DNA of 37,374 bases from Caldifarciminota bacterium (GTDB taxonomy: Bacteria > Hydrothermota > Hydrothermia > LBFQ01). Of the stretch, positions 3,622 to 16,492 are shown piece by piece; within the stretch, counting starts at the first letter, position 1; each line of letters begins with the position of its first letter. The position numbers were made by a program, and so were the translations under genes. The notes under the pieces were generated by a model that was not told where the DNA came from, searched no databases, and saw only the letters and a list, made by a program, of their open reading frames with translations. The DNA is taken from assembly GCA_015490465.1 (NCBI GenBank), contig WFXS01000079.1:1-37374 (forward strand), read 5' to 3'.

Positions 3622-3683
3622 AATAGGGACGGTGAGGGAAGGCAGAGATTTACTTGAAAACGATCCGGTCCTCCGTCGGATAG
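3618..3683 (+). repeat. Direct repeat copy B (duplicated MNT 5' end)
   Basis: Second copy of the 66-bp unit at 2869-2934, 8 mismatches. It retains the TAGAAT hexamer at 3619-3624, 7 nt before a GTG at 3632. Confidence 0.9.
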
Positions 3684-3751
3684 CAGTACTTTCGCGGCCT
3701 GAAGATTCAGAATTGAGGGATTTGTGCCGGTTAAGTCAACTTGAGGATTGA
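3632..3751 (+). pseudogene. Truncated second copy of MNT nucleotidyltransferase
   Basis: The frame from GTG 3632 begins VREGRDLLENDPVLRRI, matching VRDGRALLEKDPVLRRI of the intact gene, then diverges and stops at 3749-3751 after 39 codons. The catalytic GS...DxD region is absent. It looks like the remnant of a second MNT unit in a tandem array. From 3752 to 3851 I see no gene or clear RNA structure. Confidence 0.75.
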
Positions 3752-3851
3752 AAAAGCCTACCCCAAAGCCTCATACTCTTTCCTCCGTAGAATGCATGTA
3801 TACCAATGTTGGGGCGCTATCCCATGATGGCATTAATTAGTGGAAATGGTA

Positions 3852-4403
3852 TTACTGCCTTGGACCCATAATCTTCCCCATAACGAAGAATCTGACACCG
3901 TCCGGAGAAAAGCGGAAGTCGTTTAAGACCACCACCCAACCCCTCTTCCTGTACAGGGAAATGGCAGGTTCGTTATCGGATCTCACCGTGAGCAACGCCA
4001 CAGGCTCAGGACGGTCCTTCAGAAGTAAATCGTGAAGCCTCCCTCCGATTCCCCGCCTCTGATATTCGGGATGTACGGCCAGCTCAACGAATTCGTAATG
4101 CTCCGGTTCCATCCACTCCTTTCGCTGTTCCGGTGTCATGGCCGCCCAGACCTTATCGTACCAGTACTGACCCGGATCCCCCGTATAACCGTAGGAGAAA
4201 CCCACGAGCCTGTCCCCATCAACGGCGATGAAACCCCTGTATCCTCTCCTTCTGAAGTGCCTTTTCATTATTTCCTCACGCTCTCTGATAGCCCTATCAC
4301 TTAGACCGTGGACGATGGCGTATATTTCAAGAATCTCCGGCAACCGCATTTCCATCTCCTCCCGCGAGGCTTCCCGGATCTCTACTTTACCCATACGTAT
4401 CAC
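3852..4403 (-). CDS. GNAT-family N-acetyltransferase
   Basis: Transfers an acyl group from acyl-CoA to an unknown amine. The acetyl-CoA binding motif A is clear: ELAVHPEYQRRGIGGRLHDL (R/Q-x-x-G-x-G type), followed by motif B around DNEPAISLYRKRGW. About 183 residues from GTG 4403, which overlaps the preceding stop by 4 nt (GTGA); ATG 4394 is an equally possible start giving MGKVEIREAS. It is last in an apparent operon with ppiD-like, deoC and VOC genes. The substrate cannot be read from sequence. Confidence 0.85.
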   Translation of the reverse strand: MIRMGKVEIREASREEMEMRLPEILEIYAIVHGLSDRAIREREEIMKRHFRRRGYRGFIAVDGDRLVGFSYGYTGDPGQYWYDKVWAAMTPEQRKEWMEPEHYEFVELAVHPEYQRRGIGGRLHDLLLKDRPEPVALLTVRSDNEPAISLYRKRGWVVVLNDFRFSPDGVRFFVMGKIMGPRQ

Positions 4404-4744
4404 TTCAGGGGTGTGGCCAGTTCAACGTGGTTTCCGAAGGGGTCCCGGTACAACACCGTCCTGTAGCCGAAATCCTGATCCTTAGGAGGATGCACGGGTT
4501 TGAGGCCTGCACCGTTGAGACGTTCCGTTGTAGCATCTACGTCATCCACAACGATGAATATCCCCGCTCCGTGCGTCTCATCCTCCGGACTTTTGGCACG
4601 GTGAAGGGCGATGGTCGCCGGGGACAGATCAAACTCCACGTACTCCGGCGATGCGTACCGTACGGGCAGGCCTAAGACGTCCCGGTAGAAACGCAGGGCC
4701 TTATCCATATCCGCAACGTGCAGGACGCATACGGTGAACTTCAT
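4400..4744 (-). CDS. VOC-superfamily (glyoxalase/bleomycin-resistance-like) protein
   Basis: 114 residues, one full VOC module of paired beta-alpha-beta-beta-beta units. Typical features are VLHVADMDKALRFYRDVLGL at the N-terminus, FIVVDDVDATTERLNGAGL in the middle and a C-terminal RDPFGNHVEL with the metal-ligand Glu. Members are dioxygenases, lyases or binding proteins, so the substrate is unknown. The gene starts 4 nt after deoC. A TAGAAT hexamer at 4751-4756 ends 6 nt before its ATG but also encodes the last residues and stop of deoC, so an internal promoter is only possible. Confidence 0.85.
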   Translation of the reverse strand: MKFTVCVLHVADMDKALRFYRDVLGLPVRYASPEYVEFDLSPATIALHRAKSPEDETHGAGIFIVVDDVDATTERLNGAGLKPVHPPKDQDFGYRTVLYRDPFGNHVELATPLK

Positions 4745-7552: not shown

Positions 7553-9409
7553 TTAAAACCTGAACCTCACCGGCACCCTTATCCCGGCCGTGAATATCGT
7601 CTCCCTGTAGTCCTTGAAGACGTCCACCTTCGGCGTGGGAGCCGTCGTGCTGCGGTTCCTTATCCGGTAGGAAAGGAAGGGCCTGACGTAGGGGAGGTCC
7701 CCGGAGATGCCAAAGGTTAGGTCGTTCTCCTTGTCCTCCCTGCCGTAGTGGGAGTCGGCGGTGTTGGTGGTGGTGTAGTTACGCACAGTGTGCCTGTAGG
7801 AGACGTAGGGGGATACGTAGGGGAGGGAGAGGCGGAGACCCGCCTTGAAGGTGGTGTACTCGTGGGACCAGTCCTTGGGGGTTCCGGCGGGGAGGTTCGT
7901 CGCCTCCACCTTACCGAAGAGGACGTCCCCTTTTACGGAGAGGACGGAGTACCTCAAGGTCAGGCCTGTGCCGGACCTCCGAAATCGGGCGTCGTAGACG
8001 TCAAACGTGGGGTTAAAGTCGTAGTTTCCGAAGCCGTACGTACCCCTTACGGTCAAAAGCTTAAAGGTGTAGGAGACGGACAGGCCCGTCCTCGTATAGG
8101 CGAAGGAGAGGAGTTCGTAAATCCTCGGAGACCCCGTGTACGTGGGCCTTACGCCGTAGAAGGGCATGTTCAGGTAGGAGACGGACGCCCTCAGGCCGTA
8201 GAACCTCCCCTCAAGGGATATACTGTACCGGCTGCGGTTGAGCTGCTGGTTCTGGACGTACCTGTAGAGGGAGTATGAGAGGGACGGGCCGACGTAGACC
8301 CTCCTCTTGAAACGGTAGAGGTAGGTGAGGGATACGCCGAGCCTCCAGATCCCGTCCCCTATCCCCTCAACCTCGGGGTACCTGTAGGGCTTGAGACCGA
8401 GGTAGAAGGTGTCTATCTGGGGTTGGCTGTAGTGATAGACGTTGTCGGAGGACATGTAGGCGATAACGGGAGATACGCTGACGTAGTGGTGCTTGAAAGT
8501 TCTCCGACGCCTGCGGCGCTTTCTGGCCTTCTTCTTTTTCCTTTTCTTCTTCTTCTTCAACTTTGCCTCTTTGTAGTCCACAGCTTTGAGGGAAGCGAGC
8601 ATGGGGCCGTACCCGGCCATACCCATATCCGTGAACCGGAACAGTCCTCCTTCCCTTTTCTTACGTCTAACCTTTTCCACGTAAGGTTTGACCGCGCCTT
8701 CCGCACCGGATACCACTATCCTGTAGCGGTGGAGACCTTTGGGTACCTTCAGACTGAGTTTCAGAGGTACGGATGCGGCAATTCTACTGTTTCCCGACAG
8801 AAATACGGCTCTCCTTGAAGGTTTAAGCGTCTTTATGGCCGATTTTACGAGCCGTCTCCCCTTATACACCTTGAGCTTCGCCTTCACCCTGTTCCTATCT
8901 TTCATAAAAGCGCGGAAGAAGATGTGGAGCTTCGTCGGTCCCTTGACCTTGACCACGACCTCCTTATCCGCCCTGTAGTAGGTGTAGCGGTTCTCACCCA
9001 CCAGGAGGACGACGGGGTACCCTCCCCCCTCCGGCTGGATGGGTTTCCAGCGGCGGCGCACGTACCTGTAGATGCGGGCTATGGCCTCCGGTGAGGCGTA
9101 GAAGTCGTAGGTGCCGGCCGTTAGGTGCATCCTTATCTCGCTCTTACCCTTCTTGAAGGGGAACACCCTCCGTTTCCCGTTCTTGCGGTTTACGTACCAG
9201 AGTTTGCCGCTCCTGTCCGCCCGGAGTTTCCACTTGACGCTCATGCTCTTTTTTACCTTGATCCTCACGGGCGTGTTGGGTGAGAGCTGGAGGTAATCCT
9301 TCTTCCCGACCGTGGCTCTCGGCCCTTCGGCCAGATCCGTAATATCAACCCATGCCCCCATCAGGGAGACGGGAAGCAGAACAGAGATGAAAAACGCTAA
9401 CCTCTTCAT
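7553..9409 (-). CDS. Outer-membrane beta-barrel protein with long polybasic linker (pgs operon)
   Basis: 618 residues from ATG 9409, which overlaps the pgsW stop by 4 nt; the open frame extends further upstream inside pgsW but only this start gives a signal peptide (MKRLAFFISVLLPVSLMGAW). Residues 20-270 are beta-rich and Lys/Arg-rich. About 279-308 holds an almost uninterrupted run of Lys then Arg. After it come alternating amphipathic beta-strands with many Tyr/Arg/Ser, and the chain ends VPVRFRF, the terminal Phe expected for Bam-dependent barrels. No named family is recognised. As the last gene of the pgsB-pgsC-pgsW operon it may export, anchor or bind the acidic polymer. This role is inference. 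Confidence 0.8.
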   Translation of the reverse strand: MKRLAFFISVLLPVSLMGAWVDITDLAEGPRATVGKKDYLQLSPNTPVRIKVKKSMSVKWKLRADRSGKLWYVNRKNGKRRVFPFKKGKSEIRMHLTAGTYDFYASPEAIARIYRYVRRRWKPIQPEGGGYPVVLLVGENRYTYYRADKEVVVKVKGPTKLHIFFRAFMKDRNRVKAKLKVYKGRRLVKSAIKTLKPSRRAVFLSGNSRIAASVPLKLSLKVPKGLHRYRIVVSGAEGAVKPYVEKVRRKKREGGLFRFTDMGMAGYGPMLASLKAVDYKEAKLKKKKKRKKKKARKRRRRRRTFKHHYVSVSPVIAYMSSDNVYHYSQPQIDTFYLGLKPYRYPEVEGIGDGIWRLGVSLTYLYRFKRRVYVGPSLSYSLYRYVQNQQLNRSRYSISLEGRFYGLRASVSYLNMPFYGVRPTYTGSPRIYELLSFAYTRTGLSVSYTFKLLTVRGTYGFGNYDFNPTFDVYDARFRRSGTGLTLRYSVLSVKGDVLFGKVEATNLPAGTPKDWSHEYTTFKAGLRLSLPYVSPYVSYRHTVRNYTTTNTADSHYGREDKENDLTFGISGDLPYVRPFLSYRIRNRSTTAPTPKVDVFKDYRETIFTAGIRVPVRFRF

Positions 9410-10536
9410 ACCGTTTCTTCCTCCTTTCTCGGATTTCCAAAGAACCTGCCGAGGTATCCGTTGACGACCAGAAAGACCAGGACGAGGTAGCCAAAAAGGA
9501 GGAGGGCCTGAACCCACAGGACGTACCTCTCCTCAAAGAAGAGCCTACCCTCTCCAACCTCCGGCATGGCCGCCACTACGAGGGGGAGGCCGTACCTCTT
9601 CGCGAGGGTCCTGACGTGCAGCAGGTGTATCACCGGGGCGCCCTCCTTTAGGAACTTCGCCACCAACCCCTCAACCGGGTAGTCCGATAGGGAGAGGTCG
9701 GTGTATGTGCGGGGCCAGTTCACGCCCGGATTTAAAAGCTCTCCCACCTCGTGGGAACCGAGGCTGGCCACCCCACCGCCGATGTTTATGAAGGCCCTTA
9801 TCCTGCCCTTCGCCGCACCTTTTAGGGCGGAGTACTTGGCATCTACGGACCTCTGCAGGGGTAGGACCTCAAGGAGGCGGTACCCGTTCCGCCTTATGGC
9901 CTCCCGCAGCATCCTCCGGCCCTCCTCCGGCAGCCCCGCCCCTACGTCGTTGTTCCCTCCGAGGGAGACGAGGAGAGATGTCCCCTTGATCACCCCCTTC
10001 TCCCGCAGGGCCTTTTCCATATCCGGCCAGGTGAAGTCGGGGATGTTGGCCCCCCAGCTGGAGGAGCCGGCGGAGGAGACCCAGACCGGGATAGCGCCGT
10101 AGGTCTCAATCGCTATCAGGGTGGCGACGTTCAGGGCGGGGAAGGATCCGGTCATATGGACGGCGACGTAGTCTCCCCTCTTAACCTTCGCCTCTCTTAA
10201 CAGTTCCACCACTAAGGCCGCCCAGTTGGGGTTTATCGTCATCTGCTTCGCCAGCAGGTCGCCGGTGGTCGTAGTTATGGGGGAGTCCTTGTAGCCTATA
10301 AGCCCGCTAAGGGCGGGGTCGTTCACGGAGTCTATGGGTATGTCCCTGCGGAGCCTCTCTTTTTTCAGAACTGCGAACGCCTTCAGGGTGCGCCTTGCGG
10401 CCGTCAATTTTACGTCGTACAGGGGCGCCCTGGCCGTCGTCTTGGCCAGAGCGGAGAGGGCTATCACCACCACCCCCACCACGCCGAGGAAGACCATCTC
10501 GGCCGTGTTTAAGCGGTGCTTGAAGAAGATCCTCAT
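9406..10536 (-). CDS. pgsW: Poly-gamma-glutamate system protein PgsW
   Basis: 376 residues with an N-terminal transmembrane helix (about 14-31) and a C-terminal one (about 347-367), leaving a large extracytoplasmic domain between. Conserved-looking segments include LSGLIGYKDSPITTTTGDL, VAVHMTGSFPALN, SAGSSSWGANIPDFTWPDME and INIGGGVASLG. These match my memory of the PgsW family, which accompanies PgsB and PgsC in bacteria that lack the usual PgsA/CapA. It lies directly after pgsC with an ATGA overlap. Its molecular activity is unknown; a part in polymer transfer or release is inferred from context. Confidence 0.8.
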   Translation of the reverse strand: MRIFFKHRLNTAEMVFLGVVGVVVIALSALAKTTARAPLYDVKLTAARRTLKAFAVLKKERLRRDIPIDSVNDPALSGLIGYKDSPITTTTGDLLAKQMTINPNWAALVVELLREAKVKRGDYVAVHMTGSFPALNVATLIAIETYGAIPVWVSSAGSSSWGANIPDFTWPDMEKALREKGVIKGTSLLVSLGGNNDVGAGLPEEGRRMLREAIRRNGYRLLEVLPLQRSVDAKYSALKGAAKGRIRAFINIGGGVASLGSHEVGELLNPGVNWPRTYTDLSLSDYPVEGLVAKFLKEGAPVIHLLHVRTLAKRYGLPLVVAAMPEVGEGRLFFEERYVLWVQALLLFGYLVLVFLVVNGYLGRFFGNPRKEEETV

Positions 10537-10985
10537 ATCACCACCTCCCCGCCATGGAGGAGTATGAGCAGGAGCCTCACGACGGCCACATTAACGAAGA
10601 GCATTCCGAGGGTGGGGAGGACGCCTTGCTTGTCCATCCAGTAGGCGAGGAGTCCGGGGATCACGAAACCGAAGGTCTGAAGCTGGAAGAGGATGGGGGA
10701 GGGGTAGGCGACGGCCACCCACTTACTGAGGTAGGAGAAGATGAAGCCGAGGAGAACGGCGACGAGGAGCCTCCTGCGGCCGTAAAGGAGCATCTGGGAG
10801 GATATGATTCTCAAAAACAGGTAAGCCAGAAAGGCCGCCAACAGGGTGGCGAGAAGCATCAGGGGCCGGGAGGATATTACGACGAAGTACCCCGGCACCA
10901 CCAGACCCCCGGCGACGAAGCCGAGGACCTCCGAAGAGTAGAGGGAAAACACCAAACCGAGGGCTACGGCTTCCGTAAGTATCAT
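10533..10985 (-). CDS. pgsC: Poly-gamma-glutamate biosynthesis membrane protein PgsC
   Basis: 150 residues, about five hydrophobic segments and short loops, matching the usual size of PgsC/CapC. The N-terminal FVAGGLVVPGYFVV segment and the central FGFVIPGLLAYWMDKQG are typical. PgsC works with PgsB in the inner membrane to make and translocate gamma-linked polyglutamate. It overlaps pgsB and pgsW by 4 nt on each side, so translation is coupled. Confidence 0.9.
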   Translation of the reverse strand: MILTEAVALGLVFSLYSSEVLGFVAGGLVVPGYFVVISSRPLMLLATLLAAFLAYLFLRIISSQMLLYGRRRLLVAVLLGFIFSYLSKWVAVAYPSPILFQLQTFGFVIPGLLAYWMDKQGVLPTLGMLFVNVAVVRLLLILLHGGEVVI

Positions 10986-12187
10986 ACCTTTGCCTCCTTT
11001 TCAAGGGCTTCCACGATTTTGCCACCTATACCGACGATGTTGCCCATGGTGACGAGGACGTTCTCCCTGTCGGCCACCTTCCATATCTCCTCAACGACTT
11101 TTTGGGCCACATCCTCCGCCTCCGGATCCGGGACGGGGTTGGTATGCTCAACGGCCGTTATCTTCTCTTCGGGGACGCCGGCCCCCTTGAGGGCCTTGAC
11201 GATGTAGGAGGTGAAGGTGCCGACGATGAAGTAGTGGTCGGCCTCTATGCGGGTCCCCACTATCCTGGCGAAGCTCTCCGTCCTCTGCGGCCTGTCCTTT
11301 CGCAGGGTGAGGACGACGAGCCTCTTCCCCTTCCGCCTCCGATTCACCATGTCCCATATTATCACGGTTGAGTCGGGGTCATTAGCAGCGAAGGCGTTGA
11401 AGAGGTATATCCGCTTCCCCTCCCTCTCAACGATGGTCTCCGTCAGGACGCCGGGGTCGGGGATCACCTTGTACATCCTCTGGAGGGCCACCTCCCGCGG
11501 TACGCCGAAGTGTCTGGCCACCGCGAGGGCTATGGCCACGTTCTCCTTATGCTCTATGTAGGGGAAGCCCAGCATCTCCTCGTCCCTGACGTCCTCTGCG
11601 GAGACCTTGACGATCCGCGTGTTCCTCTTCTTCGCCTCCTCCTCAAACACCCAGAACCACCTGTCCTCGGCCGTGAAGGCTATCCCGTTCTTGGGGAGGG
11701 AGAGGGCGAGGTTCCGGGCGACGTCGTAGAGGGTCGGCCCCATGACGTCAAGGTGATCCTCCCTTACGTTGGTTATGACCCCCACGGTGCTGCGGATTAT
11801 CTTCTCCTCAAGGATGCGGATGTAGTCCGGTGTTATGGCCATACACTCCACCACGAGGGTGTCCGCCCCGACCTCAACAGCCCTCTTTACGACCTTCAAC
11901 TGCTCTATTATGTTGGGCTTTCCGGGGCGGAATATGGGTACCTCCCTGCCGTCCGGGTATATGAAGCGCGGGGTCGTTCCCGTCGTCTTTACGACCACCT
12001 TGCGGCCATCCCCCCGCAGGGCCGCCCCGATCAGGCGGGTGACGGAGGACTTACCCCGCGAGCCGTTCACGTGTATGCGGTTGGGGATGAGCCTTAGCCG
12101 CCTCAAGTGCAGGCGGTACCTGACCGCCTCCGCCACCATGAACGTCAGGGCGGCCCCCCCAACGCTCAGAACGAAGGGGTCAGTCAT
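10982..12187 (-). CDS. pgsB: Poly-gamma-glutamate synthase subunit PgsB
   Basis: An ATP-dependent ligase of the Mur/folylpolyglutamate fold that elongates gamma-glutamyl chains. 401 residues. An N-terminal membrane-anchoring segment is followed by the P-loop GSRGKSS at 42-48 (HVNGSRGKSSVTRLI), then VVKTTGTTPRFIYPDGREV, ECMAITPDY and ITNVREDHLDVMGPT, all characteristic of PgsB/CapB. I chose ATG 12187 because GAGGAGG lies just upstream and because the preceding part of the frame is a shadow of the neighbour's acidic tail. It overlaps the upstream gene by 8 nt. Confidence 0.93.
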   Translation of the reverse strand: MTDPFVLSVGGAALTFMVAEAVRYRLHLRRLRLIPNRIHVNGSRGKSSVTRLIGAALRGDGRKVVVKTTGTTPRFIYPDGREVPIFRPGKPNIIEQLKVVKRAVEVGADTLVVECMAITPDYIRILEEKIIRSTVGVITNVREDHLDVMGPTLYDVARNLALSLPKNGIAFTAEDRWFWVFEEEAKKRNTRIVKVSAEDVRDEEMLGFPYIEHKENVAIALAVARHFGVPREVALQRMYKVIPDPGVLTETIVEREGKRIYLFNAFAANDPDSTVIIWDMVNRRRKGKRLVVLTLRKDRPQRTESFARIVGTRIEADHYFIVGTFTSYIVKALKGAGVPEEKITAVEHTNPVPDPEAEDVAQKVVEEIWKVADRENVLVTMGNIVGIGGKIVEALEKEAKV

Positions 12188-12704
12188 CCTCCTCCTCTTC
12201 TTCTTCCTTTCCCTCCTTCTCTTCCTTTTCCCCTCCCGGATACATCCCCTCACCCTCACCGGAGGGGAAGGAGGTCAGGCCCTGCTCCGCGGCGTGTCTT
12301 ATGGCGCCTCCGGTCTTTGCGGCGTAGACGCCACCGCCGAGGGAGAGGACGGAGAGGAGCAGGAGCGCCCAGTCCCCGAACCGGAAGGGGAGGAAGAGAT
12401 AGACGGCGGAGAGGAGACCGGTTATGATGGAGAGGTAGAGGGGAAACTTGGCAGCCTCTTCGTGCTTTTCTATGGCCTCTTCAAGGACCCCCGGAAGGTG
12501 TTCAACCATCTCCTCGGCGTTATGTCCACTGAAGTAGGCCACTATTGTGCCGAGGGCGGCGAGGAGGAGAATGAAGGCGGCCACCCGCTTGATCTCCGTA
12601 TTCCCCCTGACCATGCCGTAGGCCAGGAGACCCGCCCCAAAGAGAAACCCGAAGACGGGTATGTGGTTGGTTAAAAGGTGCAGGTACGCAGCGTTCATAT
12701 TCAC
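12180..12704 (-). CDS. Four-TM membrane protein (DUF2231-like) with acidic tail
   Basis: 174 residues. An N-terminal motif AAYLHLLTNHIPVFGFLFG and about four transmembrane helices (about 10-30, 40-60, 88-106, 110-128) resemble small heme-associated membrane proteins found beside cytochromes in anaerobes; His9, His14, His61 and His81 are candidate ligands. The C-terminus (about 149-174) is almost all Glu, Lys and Asp, ending in a run of Glu and Asp. It overlaps the diheme lipoprotein gene by 4 nt and pgsB by 8 nt. Function is unknown; an electron-transfer role is inferred from its neighbours. Confidence 0.7.
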   Translation of the reverse strand: MNMNAAYLHLLTNHIPVFGFLFGAGLLAYGMVRGNTEIKRVAAFILLLAALGTIVAYFSGHNAEEMVEHLPGVLEEAIEKHEEAAKFPLYLSIITGLLSAVYLFLPFRFGDWALLLLSVLSLGGGVYAAKTGGAIRHAAEQGLTSFPSGEGEGMYPGGEKEEKEGKEEEEEEDD

Positions 12705-13180
12705 CTGTTGCAGGATAAAACGTTCCCGGCCTTACCTCCGGGCCTGTGGCAGTCGTTGCAACCGCCGTGGTAGGGATGGAGCCTCATAGCAAGGACCTTC
12801 CCATCGGGACACTCCACCCTGGCGTAGTACTGGGCCGTACTCAGGGAAGAGGAAGTTTTTAAGTTGCCGTAGTCGTCCGTAAGAAGTACGAGGGAGTCTC
12901 CGGCACCTACGGCCTTGAGGATGACCCTGGCACCGGGGAGGGGGTCTCCGTTGGGCCTGTCCCATACTGTCCCCGCGTACCTGAACATGGGCCTCTCCAG
13001 TCCCCCCTCTTCCTCCTCGTACTCCGGTCGGGCGTGGCAGGAGAGACAGTCGGCCTTGAACTTCAGGCCGGCCTCCCGTATCAGGGCGTGGTTGGGCCCG
13101 TAATCCTCCTCTCCCTCAAACTCCCCGACCTCACACCCGATCAGAAGGAGCGCCGGAATCATCAGAAGGAACCACCTCAT
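12701..13180 (-). CDS. Lipoprotein with two CxxCH heme motifs
   Basis: 159 residues. The signal peptide MRWFLLMIPALLLIGC has a lipobox with the lipidated Cys at 16. Two c-type heme-binding motifs, CLSCH at 45-49 and CNDCH at 141-145, flank a beta-rich middle (about 68-125) that resembles a carboxypeptidase-regulatory-like insert. It is likely a periplasmic, membrane-tethered diheme electron carrier. ATG 13180 was preferred over upstream starts because it begins the signal peptide and has a GGGGGGAG site before it. It lies between two polytopic membrane proteins with potential heme His residues. Confidence 0.85.
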   Translation of the reverse strand: MRWFLLMIPALLLIGCEVGEFEGEEDYGPNHALIREAGLKFKADCLSCHARPEYEEEEGGLERPMFRYAGTVWDRPNGDPLPGARVILKAVGAGDSLVLLTDDYGNLKTSSSLSTAQYYARVECPDGKVLAMRLHPYHGGCNDCHRPGGKAGNVLSCNR

Positions 13181-13191
13181 ACTCCCCCCTT

Positions 13192-13785
13192 TCAGAAGAT
13201 TATCCACAGCCCCGTCAGCGTAGCCAGACCCGTTGCGACCAACATCCAGTTCCTGTGCTGCTCGTAGTACCCCCGGTAGCCGAGGTACCCGGCGTAGAGG
13301 TAGGCCCCGGTGGCGGACCACGCCAGGACGCCGTGTACGAGACGGCGGAAGGATCCTTCCTTCTCACCCCAGAGCTTCAGGTAGTTGTACGTGCCGATGG
13401 AGGACTGGACGAGGGAGAGGGAGAAGACCGTATAGCCTACGGCCCTGTGGGAAATACGCACCGCCTCCGGAGGCGTTTCTCCCCTCTGGTAGAGGTTGAG
13501 TTCGTACAGGCCGAGGCCGACGTTGGCGAGGCTTCCGAGGATTATACCGTACCCCATCCAGCGGTGGAGGGTGAAGGTGGTGTAGGACTCATGCTCCTCG
13601 TACTCCTCCCCTTCCTCCTCATCGTCCTCCACTTCCACCATCTCCTCGCCGGTGGAAACCTCCTCCTGCATTAGCTCCTCGTCCTCCTCGCTCCCCTCGT
13701 CGGCGAGGGCGAGTTTCACCTCCCGACCACAGCAGGCCTCCAGCCCATCGCCCGCGTAGAGGGACAAGAGCATCAACCACGTCAT
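13192..13785 (-). CDS. Cytochrome b561-like four-helix membrane protein with acidic linker
   Basis: 197 residues. A signal-like N-terminus and a Cys pair (18-19) are followed by a strongly acidic stretch (about 29-66, mostly Glu and Asp). Four transmembrane helices follow. His74 (LHRWMGYG), His113 (SHRAVGYTVF), His151 (LVHGVLAW) and His177 (QHRNWML) each lie near a helix end, as in b561-type diheme cytochromes. It overlaps the YceI-like gene by 4 nt and precedes the diheme lipoprotein by 11 nt. The heme assignment is inferred from His placement. Confidence 0.7.
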   Translation of the reverse strand: MTWLMLLSLYAGDGLEACCGREVKLALADEGSEEDEELMQEEVSTGEEMVEVEDDEEEGEEYEEHESYTTFTLHRWMGYGIILGSLANVGLGLYELNLYQRGETPPEAVRISHRAVGYTVFSLSLVQSSIGTYNYLKLWGEKEGSFRRLVHGVLAWSATGAYLYAGYLGYRGYYEQHRNWMLVATGLATLTGLWIIF

Positions 13786-14330
13786 CTTCTTACCTCCAGA
13801 ACAATTCTACCTGAGACAACTACATCATCCGGCGCCCGCTTTACGAAGCCGAAGAGGGTGGGTGGCTTTATGCCGAAGTCGGTGAACTTGACGTGCCGGG
13901 AGGTCTTCAGCTCAAGGAGGTCCTCCGCCAGCCAGCGGTACTTCACCTTCCACGTGTAGGTCTTCGCCTTCCCCTTAACCCTGAGTCTGGCCCGTACCTT
14001 CACCGTGCCGCTGTCGGAGTTCAGGACCCTGTCTATGGCGTCCTTCGGATACGCAAGGAGGGAGAAGTATATGTACTTGTGCTTCGGATAGCCCAGTATC
14101 TTGGCCACCTCTCTGTCTCTGGTCGTGTTGCCGGACTTGAAGGAGCGGACGGGAACCTTGACCTTCAGGTAGAACCTGCCGTCGTCCTTGAAGCCCACAT
14201 TCACCTTGAGTTTCTCGCTCTTGCCGGTGACGGGGTCGGGGACGGCGCCGAGTGCCTTCAACACCGTGTGGTACTGAACGTAGCCCTCTTTGAAGGAGAG
14301 GGTAAGAGAAAGGAAAACTGACAGCAGCAT
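13782..14330 (-). CDS. YceI-like exported beta-barrel (lipocalin-like) protein
   Basis: 182 residues with a short signal peptide (MLLSVFLSLTLSF). Features of the YceI family include FKSGNTTRDREVAKILGYPK, corresponding to the family's 'S-x-N-x-x-RD-x-H' region, and alternating beta-strands to the C-terminus (RAPDDVVVSGRIVLEVRR). YceI proteins bind isoprenoid or quinone-like lipids in the periplasm and often sit next to b561-type cytochromes, as here. First gene of the pgs operon. The start ATG lies exactly 8 nt after TATAAT. Confidence 0.75.
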   Translation of the reverse strand: MLLSVFLSLTLSFKEGYVQYHTVLKALGAVPDPVTGKSEKLKVNVGFKDDGRFYLKVKVPVRSFKSGNTTRDREVAKILGYPKHKYIYFSLLAYPKDAIDRVLNSDSGTVKVRARLRVKGKAKTYTWKVKYRWLAEDLLELKTSRHVKFTDFGIKPPTLFGFVKRAPDDVVVSGRIVLEVRR

Positions 14331-14338
14331 AACCTATA

Positions 14339-14344
14339 ATTATA
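14339..14344 (-). promoter_or_regulatory. -10 hexamer TATAAT of the YceI-pgs operon
   Basis: TATAAT ends 8 nt before ATG 14330, with no Shine-Dalgarno. This appears to be the only promoter before the eight overlapping genes down to 7553. Confidence 0.65.
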
Positions 14345-14407: not shown

Positions 14408-16492
14408 ATGTTCGTGGCTTTGATCTCTACCAGTATTTTCGGAACCTCAGGTTATGAGAGGACACAGTCCGCCCTTTTCCACGAGAGGCCGACCCTCCTT
14501 CTGACCATCCCCTCCGTACGCTTTGGGTACGACCACGAGAGAGGCGCCGGTCTGTACTCCTACCTTCCCGTGGACCATCCCTTGCCCGATGTAAGGACCT
14601 TCAACACCTTCTTCGCCGACCTCCACCTCGGCGTGGGCATATCCTACAGGTTCCTTGAGGTCGGCCTGTCCGCCCCGCTCAGATACGACCAGCTCAACCT
14701 GAACGAGACGGGGGAGATGTTCTACGCCTACGGTTTCGGAAACCCCACCTTTACGCTGAAGTCGGCCTACAGGTTCAGGCTTGGCAGCGTACTCGGAGGT
14801 ATGGGCCTGATGGGGTATTACGGGCCGCTTGTAGGAGATACGGGATCAACCACGCCGATAAGGAACGTCAGGGAGAGGTACAGATTTACGAGAGGGCTTG
14901 TGAGGGTTTTCAACGAACCGGATCACTTCGCCTTCGGCGGGATACTTTCCCTGCGCGGGAAGAGGTGGTCTTACGACCTCAACCTCTACATGGGTGGGGC
15001 CGACCTTGACGTAAACGTCTCTAACCTCGCCACCTTCTCCGTACTGCCGAATTTGAGGCTCCTCGGCGAGGGCTTCGTTGAGGTTGGGGGCCCCTCCTGG
15101 GTCAAGGTGGGACTGGCTTACGTAAGGGAGGGCCTGACGGTATCCCTCGCCTACGACCACCTTCTTACTCTGGGCAACTACCCGGATGTCAGGTACTCCA
15201 ACAGGTGGCCGGATTACTGGGACGTCCTCCTGAAACCTGACGCCACCGTATGGTTCTCCATATCCTACACCCTGCCCCTGTACAGGTACAGGCACACCGT
15301 ACGGGTGAAGGTGGTAAGCACGGAGGGGAAGCCCGTAAGCGGTGCGACGGTTATACTCGGTGGGAAGGTCGGCAGAACGGACGGGATAGGAAGCCTGAGG
15401 TTTGAGAACGTTAAGGAAGGAAGGTACTCCCTCAAGATAACCGCTAAGGGGTACTATCCGGAGGACGGGACGGTTGAGGTTCTCTCGGACACCACGCTGG
15501 CCGTTATCCTTCAGGAGGCTCGGACGGAGGAGCGTATGACGGAATACTTCATAAAACAGGCGGAGCAGAGTGCCGGAGCCGGAGATTACGAAGATGCCGA
15601 ACACTTCGCCAACCTCGCCCTCATATGGGCGCCCGACACGTCCTACGAGGGGAGGGTGAAGGCCCTGATGGAGAGGATAAACCGGGGAAGGTACAGGTCC
15701 CTGAAGGATAGCCTGAAGGCGTCTATGAAGAGGCGGGATTACGCTGCGGCCCTGATATACCTGAACGGCATGGACAGTCTGGCGAACGCCCTCAACTGGG
15801 AGGATTCCCTCCCGAGTCTCCGCAGGTTGCGGGACTCCATATACACGTTAGAGATACGCCGTCTGAACTTCCCCGGCGCCGAAAAGGTCGTTTCCCTGAT
15901 TGAGAGGAGACAGTACCGCAGAGCGATAGACGCCCTCAGGAGGATCCAGAAGAAACGGAACAGCAGGGTACTGGACAGGTTCATAAAACACCTCAACGTT
16001 ATGCGCAGGGAGTACGTCAGCGAGATTCTCCTGCGGGCCACCTCCCTTATAGCCTCCGGCAGGTACAACGAGGCGGAAAGGTTGTTGAAGATAGCCTTGA
16101 GGGAAGATCCGAACAACCGGAGGGCGAAAGCCCTGAGGCGTAAGCTGGTCAGGAGGAAGAAGGCCAGGGCCCGTATGCTCTACACCGAAGCCCTCTCCCA
16201 CCTTGAGAAGGGGGACACCCTTATGGCCATAGCCCGGTTGAAGGAGGCGGTTAGCCTCGCCCGGATGCCGGAGGCGAAGGATCTGCTCAAACGCATCCAG
16301 CAGAAGAAGAGCAGGAAGAGGGTCTCCCGCGAGGTTCTGGATAGGATGTACCTGATGGGGCTGGAAGCCTACCAGAGGGGGGAGTATCGCAGGGCGTACG
16401 AGATATGGCGGGAGATACTGAGGTACGATTCAACCTACACGAGGGCGAGGTTGAACGTTGAGAGGTTAAAGCGCATGATGGGAGGGGAATAG
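14408..16492 (+). CDS. Fusion of outer-membrane barrel, PEGA/carboxypeptidase-regulatory-like domain and TPR repeats
   Basis: 694 residues. A short signal-like N-terminus leads into about 290 residues of alternating amphipathic strands rich in Tyr, Gly and Leu, as in transporter-type barrels (for example LHLGVGISYRFLEVGLSAPL). Residues about 297-371 form a beta-sandwich of the PEGA or carboxypeptidase-regulatory type (VVSTEGKPVSGATVILGGKV and EGRYSLKITAKGYYPEDGTV). The rest (about 375-694) is helical, Arg/Lys-rich and built of TPR-like repeats, including YNEAERLLKIALREDPNNRR and YRRAYEIWREILRYDSTYTR. The TPR part would lie in the periplasm. It is divergent from the pgs operon; a functional link is unproven. 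Confidence 0.8.
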   Translation: MFVALISTSIFGTSGYERTQSALFHERPTLLLTIPSVRFGYDHERGAGLYSYLPVDHPLPDVRTFNTFFADLHLGVGISYRFLEVGLSAPLRYDQLNLNETGEMFYAYGFGNPTFTLKSAYRFRLGSVLGGMGLMGYYGPLVGDTGSTTPIRNVRERYRFTRGLVRVFNEPDHFAFGGILSLRGKRWSYDLNLYMGGADLDVNVSNLATFSVLPNLRLLGEGFVEVGGPSWVKVGLAYVREGLTVSLAYDHLLTLGNYPDVRYSNRWPDYWDVLLKPDATVWFSISYTLPLYRYRHTVRVKVVSTEGKPVSGATVILGGKVGRTDGIGSLRFENVKEGRYSLKITAKGYYPEDGTVEVLSDTTLAVILQEARTEERMTEYFIKQAEQSAGAGDYEDAEHFANLALIWAPDTSYEGRVKALMERINRGRYRSLKDSLKASMKRRDYAAALIYLNGMDSLANALNWEDSLPSLRRLRDSIYTLEIRRLNFPGAEKVVSLIERRQYRRAIDALRRIQKKRNSRVLDRFIKHLNVMRREYVSEILLRATSLIASGRYNEAERLLKIALREDPNNRRAKALRRKLVRRKKARARMLYTEALSHLEKGDTLMAIARLKEAVSLARMPEAKDLLKRIQQKKSRKRVSREVLDRMYLMGLEAYQRGEYRRAYEIWREILRYDSTYTRARLNVERLKRMMGGE

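What the first reader, a model, noticed from the sequence alone, without database searches (positions are those of the whole stretch)
7553..14330. Eight-gene operon joining a polyglutamate synthase (pgsB-pgsC-pgsW) to YceI, b561-like and diheme proteins and an outer-membrane barrel
All eight genes lie on one strand, nearly all linked by 4-8 nt overlaps, behind one TATAAT. Known capsular PGA operons (pgsBCA, capBCADE) do not contain cytochromes. Here a lipocalin-like YceI, a tetra-His membrane protein, a two-CxxCH lipoprotein and a four-TM protein precede the synthase, and a barrel follows it. This may be a redox-linked system that makes a gamma-glutamyl polymer and carries it across the outer membrane, or a polymer that binds metals or hemes outside the cell. 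The redox link is inference from translational coupling.
Basis: partly seen in the sequence, partly recalled or inferred. Interest (0 to 1): 0.75.

Follow-up and report, generated by a model that had tools for sequence, protein, structure and literature searches.

The report
Polyglutamate export operon, redox genes incidental
The eight genes are real, but they are two systems side by side: a widespread Gram-negative machine that probably makes polyglutamate and passes it through the outer membrane, and an unrelated, already known kind of redox cassette that sits next to it in one genus only.

Summary
The eight-gene run (7553-14330, minus strand) is real. It joins two modules that separate in relatives.

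Module 1 is the finding of value: pgsB-pgsC-pgsW followed by a protein fused from D (two basic beta-sandwich domains) and E (a 14-strand outer-membrane barrel). In most genomes D and E are separate genes in the order pgsB-C-W-D-E. E and PgsW co-occur almost perfectly: 66 genomes with both against 10 with one in the window's phylum (WOR-3; Fisher p = 2e-29), and 102 against 7 in Cloacimonadota. The order also recurs in Bacteroidales, Ignavibacteria, Calditrichota, Zixibacteria and Marinimicrobia. No library names D or E. Best reading: a dedicated inner-to-outer-membrane apparatus for poly-gamma-glutamate, whose route across the outer membrane is undescribed in the papers I could search.

Module 2 (YceI, b561-like, two-CxxCH lipoprotein, 4-TM protein) lies beside pgs only in the window's genus. 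The sister genus has pgsBCW-DE and the YceI-b561-CxxCH cassette on separate contigs, and other relatives have the cassette alone. YceI+b561 is the published BcnA-LcoA lipid-peroxyl-radical defence pair. The redox link to polymer synthesis is therefore not supported; the outer-membrane export idea is.

Polymer identity and transport are inferred, not shown.

The parts
13782..14330 (-). YceI-like periplasmic lipocalin-fold protein (182 aa), first gene of the run; redox module
   Evidence: PF04264 33.3 bits over cut-off 23.7; same cassette away from pgs in L202, L203, L205, L209
13192..13785 (-). b561-like four-helix membrane protein with four conserved His and an acidic N-terminal tail; redox module
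   Evidence: PF03188 E=7e-4, 20.2 bits, below cut-off 23; alignment A4; b561 relatives in 12 of 147 genomes, 8 of them with PgsW
12701..13180 (-). lipoprotein with two CxxCH (CLSCH, CNDCH) flanking a carboxypeptidase-regulatory-like stretch; redox module
   Evidence: relatives in 9 of 147 genomes; cytochrome c assembly proteins PF01578 present in own genome
12180..12698 (-). four-TM His-containing protein with acidic C-terminal tail (DUF2231-like by eye, no family hit)
   Evidence: no family over cut-off; distant relatives L051 and L214
10982..12187 (-). PgsB, poly-gamma-glutamate synthase (Mur-ligase-like amide ligase), P-loop NGSRGKSS
   Evidence: TIGR04012 403 bits, cut-off 222.7; PF08245 46 bits
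10533..10985 (-). PgsC, inner-membrane partner of PgsB
   Evidence: TIGR04011 102.6 bits, cut-off 96.45; PF14102 107 bits
9406..10536 (-). PgsW, membrane-anchored alpha/beta protein (one long helix near each end), occupies the position of PgsA/CapA
   Evidence: TIGR04332 312 bits, cut-off 100; AlphaFold2 pLDDT 94.3, pTM 0.91; no solved fold at E<=0.001
7553..9409 (-). D+E fusion protein (618 aa): periplasmic adaptor plus outer-membrane barrel
   Evidence: split into two adjacent genes in most of the phylum and in other phyla; AlphaFold2 pLDDT 88.7
8675..9358 (-). D region: beta-sandwich domains, strongly basic (pI 10.9 for residues 1-290)
   Evidence: (strands 18-245); D homologues median pI 9.6 against 5.3 for secreted-like neighbours
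8501..8557 (-). Lys/Arg tract KKKKKRKKKKARKRRRRRR between D and E, found in the window's genus
   Evidence: helix with low to middling confidence in the model
7556..8491 (-). E region: 14-strand outer-membrane barrel, ends ...RVPVRFRF
   Evidence: Foldseek to porins E=2.7e-8, OmpG TM-score 0.65 by target; profile A8 motifs
14339..14344 (-). TATAAT 11 nt upstream of the yceI start; no -35 partner in the scan

Best explanation
Two systems are juxtaposed. (1) pgsB-pgsC-pgsW-DE is a diderm poly-gamma-glutamate (PGA) synthesis and export apparatus. PgsB, a Mur-ligase-like enzyme, joins glutamates at the inner face of the inner membrane and PgsC passes the chain through that membrane (by homology). 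PgsW, anchored in the inner membrane with its main domain probably in the periplasm, takes the place of PgsA/CapA. D, a basic secreted beta-sandwich protein, receives the polyanion in the periplasm, and E, a 14-strand outer-membrane barrel with a positively biased lumen, lets it out. In the window's class D and E are one polypeptide. Shown here: families, gene order, co-occurrence, predicted folds, charge bias. Inferred: the product, the direction of transport, and the order of contacts. (2) YceI-b561-CxxCH lipoprotein (with the 4-TM protein) is a separate periplasmic quinone/heme redox cassette of the BcnA-LcoA kind that became stacked upstream of pgs in one genus; co-transcription there is likely, joint function is not.
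For: PgsB/C/W exceed curated cut-offs. Order pgsB-C-W-D-E holds across WOR-3 families and in Bacteroidales, Ignavibacteria, Calditrichota, Zixibacteria, Cloacimonadota and Marinimicrobia. D or E lies just downstream of PgsW in 55 of 61 WOR-3 loci and 72 of 80 loci of the named scan; median PgsW-to-D gap -3 nt. E and PgsW co-occur: 66 both, 4 PgsW only, 6 E only, 71 neither, p=2e-29; Cloacimonadota 102/3/4/16, p=7e-14. E is a predicted barrel matching porins. D is basic: median pI 9.6 against 5.3 for secreted-like neighbours, p=2e-29; E p=6e-11. Window E strands have 24 K/R against 8 D/E on the likely lumen side. Flavobacterial loci lack E but keep pgsBCW-D with a different barrel-like gene beside it, and the E profile finds nothing in the flavobacterial genome of L146. 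Cloacimonadota with PGA genes form DAPI-stained PGA flocs (PMC13082233). For module 2: cassette without pgs in L202, L203, L205, L209-L212 and the published YceI+b561 system (PMC9113575).
Against: No polymer was measured in any WOR-3 member, and Mur-ligase-like PgsB could join other substrates. E could be a general porin or an anchor rather than the exit. Barrel lumen charge was read from strand alternation, not from an electrostatic map. pgsBCW without D/E exists in diderms (Planctomycetes L189, L197). In the window's genus the two modules do overlap by 8 nt at tm4-pgsB, which fits coupling.
Confidence: 0.7

Rival explanations
1. One reading: one redox-linked system in which YceI, b561 and the CxxCH lipoprotein act together with PGA synthesis or export, or the polymer binds metal or heme for them.
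For: Overlapping or closely spaced genes through all eight, kept in the window's genus (L038, L040, L206). A DUF2231-like 4-TM gene also lies beside pgs in G054 (L051). Acidic tails on the b561 and 4-TM proteins. Cytochrome c assembly proteins exist in the genome.
Against: Only one genus has the arrangement. Sister genus G037 carries pgs on C19 and the cassette on C120; G034 and G035 likewise have them on different contigs; four b561-bearing genomes lack a detected PgsW. b561 and PgsW are not associated (p=0.23). YceI+b561 is a known independent pair (PMC9113575).
Confidence: 0.07
2. E is a dedicated porin or surface anchor for finished PGA (capsule tether), not the exit channel; PGA leaves by another route.
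For: Top structural matches are ordinary porins and OmpG, not known polymer exporters. D's basic sandwiches could bind the polymer at the surface as well as in the periplasm.
Against: Position directly after PgsW in the operon, one copy in nearly every genome, D with a signal-peptide-like start and fusion of D to the N-terminal (periplasmic) side of the barrel.
Confidence: 0.15
3. The operon makes another amide-linked polymer or modification (for example short gamma-glutamyl chains on a lipid, protein or peptidoglycan) rather than free PGA.
For: PgsB is a Mur-ligase relative; PgsW has an unmatched fold with invariant polar residues that could be catalytic.
Against: PgsB and PgsC pass equivalog cut-offs for PGA synthase; PGA staining reported in Cloacimonadota enrichments (PMC13082233).
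Confidence: 0.08

Closest known systems
Bacillus PgsBCA / CapBCADE poly-gamma-glutamate synthase
   Same: PgsB and PgsC pass the curated equivalog cut-offs and lie adjacent in the same order.
   Different: PgsW replaces PgsA/CapA; the only CapA-type gene (PF09587) found in the genome is on another contig (C72). D and E follow, which a Gram-positive cell would not need.
PgsBCW of NCBIfam TIGR04332 ('poly-gamma-glutamate system protein')
   Same: PgsW exceeds the cut-off threefold; this is a member.
   Different: The family model names PgsW only; D and E have no Pfam or NCBIfam family.
Fusobacterium nucleatum PGA (first Gram-negative producer, cited in PMC3815933)
   Same: PGA made by a diderm.
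   Different: No outer-membrane component is described in the passages read; not compared by sequence here.
Cloacimonadota PGA locus (PMC13082233, PMC8542988)
   Same: Tenebribacter genomes named there carry pgsB-C-W-D-E (L173, L177, L196).
   Different: The papers list CapB, CapC and a CapA-like protein; the passages retrieved name no outer-membrane exporter.
BcnA-LcoA (YceI lipocalin + cytochrome b561) lipid-peroxyl-radical defence (PMC9113575)
   Same: YceI and a b561-like protein as adjacent genes.
   Different: Here yceI comes first and a two-CxxCH lipoprotein is added; the b561 protein scores below the Pfam cut-off.
Porins / OmpG and polymer exporters such as AlgE, PgaA, BcsC
   Same: E is a 14-strand barrel by prediction, as OmpG is (OmpG strand number from general knowledge).
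   Different: No sequence match to any solved structure; no TPR domain; AlgE/PgaA/BcsC not among the top 50 fold matches.

Membership tests
Poly-gamma-glutamate synthase (PgsB-PgsC) | PgsB over equivalog cut-off with Mur-ligase P-loop | tested here: met
   TIGR04012 403 vs 222.7 bits; NGSRGKSS in the translation
Poly-gamma-glutamate synthase (PgsB-PgsC) | PgsC over cut-off, adjacent to PgsB | tested here: met
   TIGR04011 102.6 vs 96.45 bits; 4-nt overlap
Poly-gamma-glutamate synthase (PgsB-PgsC) | product is gamma-linked polyglutamate | not testable with these tools
   needs chemistry
Classical pgsBCA/capBCA operon | PgsA/CapA (PF09587) as third gene | tested here: not met
   third gene is PgsW; the only PF09587 hit in the genome is on C72
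Classical pgsBCA/capBCA operon | CapD gamma-glutamyltransferase or PgdS hydrolase linked | tested here: not met
   no such family among the eight genes; elsewhere in the genome not tested
TIGR04332 PgsW | score over cut-off | tested here: met
   312 vs 100 bits
Outer-membrane beta-barrel proteins | barrel fold with signal peptide and C-terminal beta-signal | tested here: met
   14 strands predicted, porin matches E=2.7e-8; 92% of separate E proteins have a signal-like start; window E ends in F and F/Y/L are the commonest last residues of E
Known polymer exporters (AlgE, PgaA, BcsC) | sequence or closest-fold relation | tested here: not met
   no PDB sequence match; not in the 50 best fold matches listed
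BcnA-LcoA redox pair | YceI domain over cut-off | tested here: met
   PF04264 33.3 vs 23.7 bits
BcnA-LcoA redox pair | adjacent cytochrome b561 | tested here: inconclusive
   PF03188 20.2 bits, below cut-off 23; four conserved His
BcnA-LcoA redox pair | protects against lipid peroxidation | not testable with these tools
   needs mutants
DUF2231 | DUF2231 Pfam match for the 4-TM protein | tested here: not met
   no DUF2231 hit at E<=1; resemblance by eye only

The most novel reading that the evidence does not exclude
PgsW-D-E is a previously undescribed trans-envelope conduit for a poly-amino acid, shared across WOR-3, Cloacimonadota, Bacteroidota and related phyla, with E as its outer-membrane exit. 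In many lineages a LVIVD-repeat lipoprotein and a C25 (gingipain-type) peptidase in the same gene cluster would process the polymer or anchor it to surface proteins, much as a gamma-glutamyltransferase anchors PGA in Gram-positive producers.
Probability: 0.3. Interest if true: 0.8.

Novelty: new variant of a known kind. Interest (0 to 1): 0.57.

Why it matters
How polyglutamate crosses an outer membrane is not described in the papers searched: the CapsuleFinder model for PGA requires only CapB and CapC, with no outer-membrane part listed in the passages read (PMC5542703), and the Cloacimonadota passages retrieved name none (PMC13082233). A conserved, genetically linked candidate (D+E) makes the question testable by knock-out and gives a marker for PGA-producing diderms in uncultured phyla of anaerobic digesters, vents and sediments. 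It also shows that the apparent redox-polymer operon is a local stacking of two modules.

Tried and rejected
Redox-coupled PGA synthesis: rejected on synteny and co-occurrence. CapA as missing partner: PF09587 is on another contig and is not detected in several PgsW genomes, e.g. G037, G051, G054, G055. PgsW by homology: no PDB sequence or fold match that means anything (best E=4e-3, TM-score 0.2 or less). D+E by sequence in PDB: none. Paper search for 'PgsW': no relevant paper. Search for papers on Stahlbacteria and PGA: none.
Full report
What is there. The window lies in a 2.05-Mb genome whose nearest named relatives are candidate division WOR-3 bacteria. On the minus strand, 14330 to 7553, eight genes follow each other with junctions of -4, +11, +2, -8, -4, -4 and -4 nt. 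Families: YceI; b561-like; two-CxxCH lipoprotein; four-TM protein; PgsB; PgsC; PgsW; and a 618-aa protein without any family. A TATAAT stands 11 nt before the first ATG, without a detectable -35.

The run splits into two modules. I took PgsW (TIGR04332) through 147 genomes of the phylum: 70 have it. I fetched 60 loci and read their gene order. pgsB-pgsC-pgsW is followed in most by two genes, here called D (about 276 aa) and E (about 330 aa). YceI, b561 and the CxxCH protein stand next to pgs only in the window's genus (L038, L040, L206, window). The sister genus G037, whose PgsW is 70% identical, has pgsBCW-DE on C19 and YceI-b561-CxxCH on C120; G034 and G035 also have them on different contigs; G036, G039 and G031 have the cassette or most of it with no PgsW detected (for G039 a D+E fragment at a contig end, suggests that its pgs genes are merely missing from the assembly). 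The window genome has a second b561-CxxCH pair on C72 (L201). b561 carriers are not enriched for PgsW (8 of 12 against 70 of 147; p=0.23).

The redox module. YceI lipocalin next to cytochrome b561 is a published pair, BcnA-LcoA, which protects Gram-negative envelopes from lipid peroxyl radicals (PMC9113575). Here a two-CxxCH lipoprotein is added; in G036 and G044 a different single-CxxCH protein holds that place (L210, L211). The genome has cytochrome c assembly proteins (PF01578), so heme attachment is possible. Its function here is inferred from the published pair.

The polymer module. Across the named scan, D or E follows PgsW in 72 of 80 loci, and in 55 of 61 WOR-3 loci; the median distance from PgsW to D is -3 nt. 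The two sets overlap in some WOR-3 genomes. The order pgsB-C-W-D-E is seen in Bacteroidales, Ignavibacteria, Calditrichota, Zixibacteria, Cloacimonadota and Marinimicrobia. Co-occurrence over whole genomes: in WOR-3 66 have both, 4 PgsW only, 6 E only, 71 neither (p=2e-29). Several exceptions are contig ends (G040, G038, G039, G082, G112). In Cloacimonadota 102 have both, 3 PgsW only, 4 E only, 16 neither (p=7e-14). The genomes are related, so these p-values overstate independence; the repeated order in several phyla does not depend on them. In Flavobacteria E is absent, but D is kept and a different barrel-like gene and a lipoprotein follow (L146). Planctomycetes have pgsBCW without D/E (L189, L197).

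Structures and charge. The D+E model (pLDDT 88.7) has beta-sandwich domains at residues 18-245, a Lys/Arg-rich linker, and a 14-strand barrel at 307-618. Foldseek finds porins at E=2.7e-8 and OmpG with TM-score 0.65 normalised to the target. D proteins are strongly basic (median pI 9.6, n=111) compared with other secreted-like proteins in the same loci (5.3, n=241; p=2e-29); E proteins less so (8.8; p=6e-11). Lumen-side residues of the window's E strands, assigned by alternation, have 24 K/R and 8 D/E. A basic periplasmic protein and a positively biased pore fit a polyanion such as PGA. PgsW is predicted with high confidence (pLDDT 94.3), but no solved structure matches it.

Mechanism. PgsB makes and PgsC passes the gamma-glutamyl chain through the inner membrane, by homology with Bacillus, where PgsBC suffices for production (PMC6029982). 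PgsW takes the place of PgsA. D accepts the chain in the periplasm and E lets it out. Synthesis by PgsBC follows from family membership; the rest is inferred. Support from outside: Cloacimonadota, which carry this locus (Tenebribacter L173, L177, L196), are reported with DAPI-stained PGA flocs in an enrichment of another genus (PMC13082233) and with PGA genes in Antarctic genomes (PMC8542988).

Novelty. PgsW is a named NCBI family. D and E have no family, and I found no paper that describes an outer-membrane exit for PGA; the passages retrieved from the CapsuleFinder PGA model mention only CapA-E and PgsS (PMC5542703). The library holds open-licence papers only, so earlier description elsewhere is possible. 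I rate it a new variant of a known kind: PGA synthesis with a diderm export extension.

Beyond the window. LVIVD-repeat lipoproteins and C25 peptidases lie on the same strand within 7.5 kb of PgsW in 40 and 34 of 61 WOR-3 loci and in 26 and 27 of 80 named loci. C25 genes are numerous in this phylum (present in all 147 genomes), so a matched control is needed before a functional link is claimed. In the window itself neither lies in the eight-gene run.

Noticed in passing
L061, L142, L155, L177, L200 and others: A LVIVD-repeat lipoprotein and/or a C25 (gingipain-type) peptidase, often with T9SS-like sorting tails, flank pgsBCW-D-E in WOR-3, Bacteroidales, Ignavibacteria, Cloacimonadota and Marinimicrobia.
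   Followed up: partly
window 8501-8557: Lys/Arg tract (KKKKKRKKKKARKRRRRRR) between D and E, found in the window's genus and absent from the sister genus.
   Followed up: partly
window 13590-13720 and 12180-12215: Poly-acidic tails on the b561-like protein (N-terminal) and the four-TM protein (C-terminal), kept in the genus; no explanation.
   Followed up: no
L201 (G000:C72) 3675-4588: Second, shorter b561-CxxCH pair in the same genome, on the same contig as the only CapA-type (PF09587) gene found.
   Followed up: no
L146, L143, L148: Flavobacterial pgsBCW-D loci with E replaced by a different barrel-like gene and a carboxypeptidase-regulatory-like lipoprotein.
   Followed up: partly
G212, G217, G218 (Cloacimonadota): E matches lie in open frames of 645-654 aa, which may be independent D-E fusions.
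   Followed up: no
L051 (G054): Rearranged locus pgsC-W-DE-pgsB followed by a DUF2231-like four-TM gene with an acidic tail.
   Followed up: no
window 14408-16492: Divergent gene on the plus strand: 694-aa protein with carboxypeptidase-regulatory and TPR domains, next to yceI in the window's genus.
   Followed up: no
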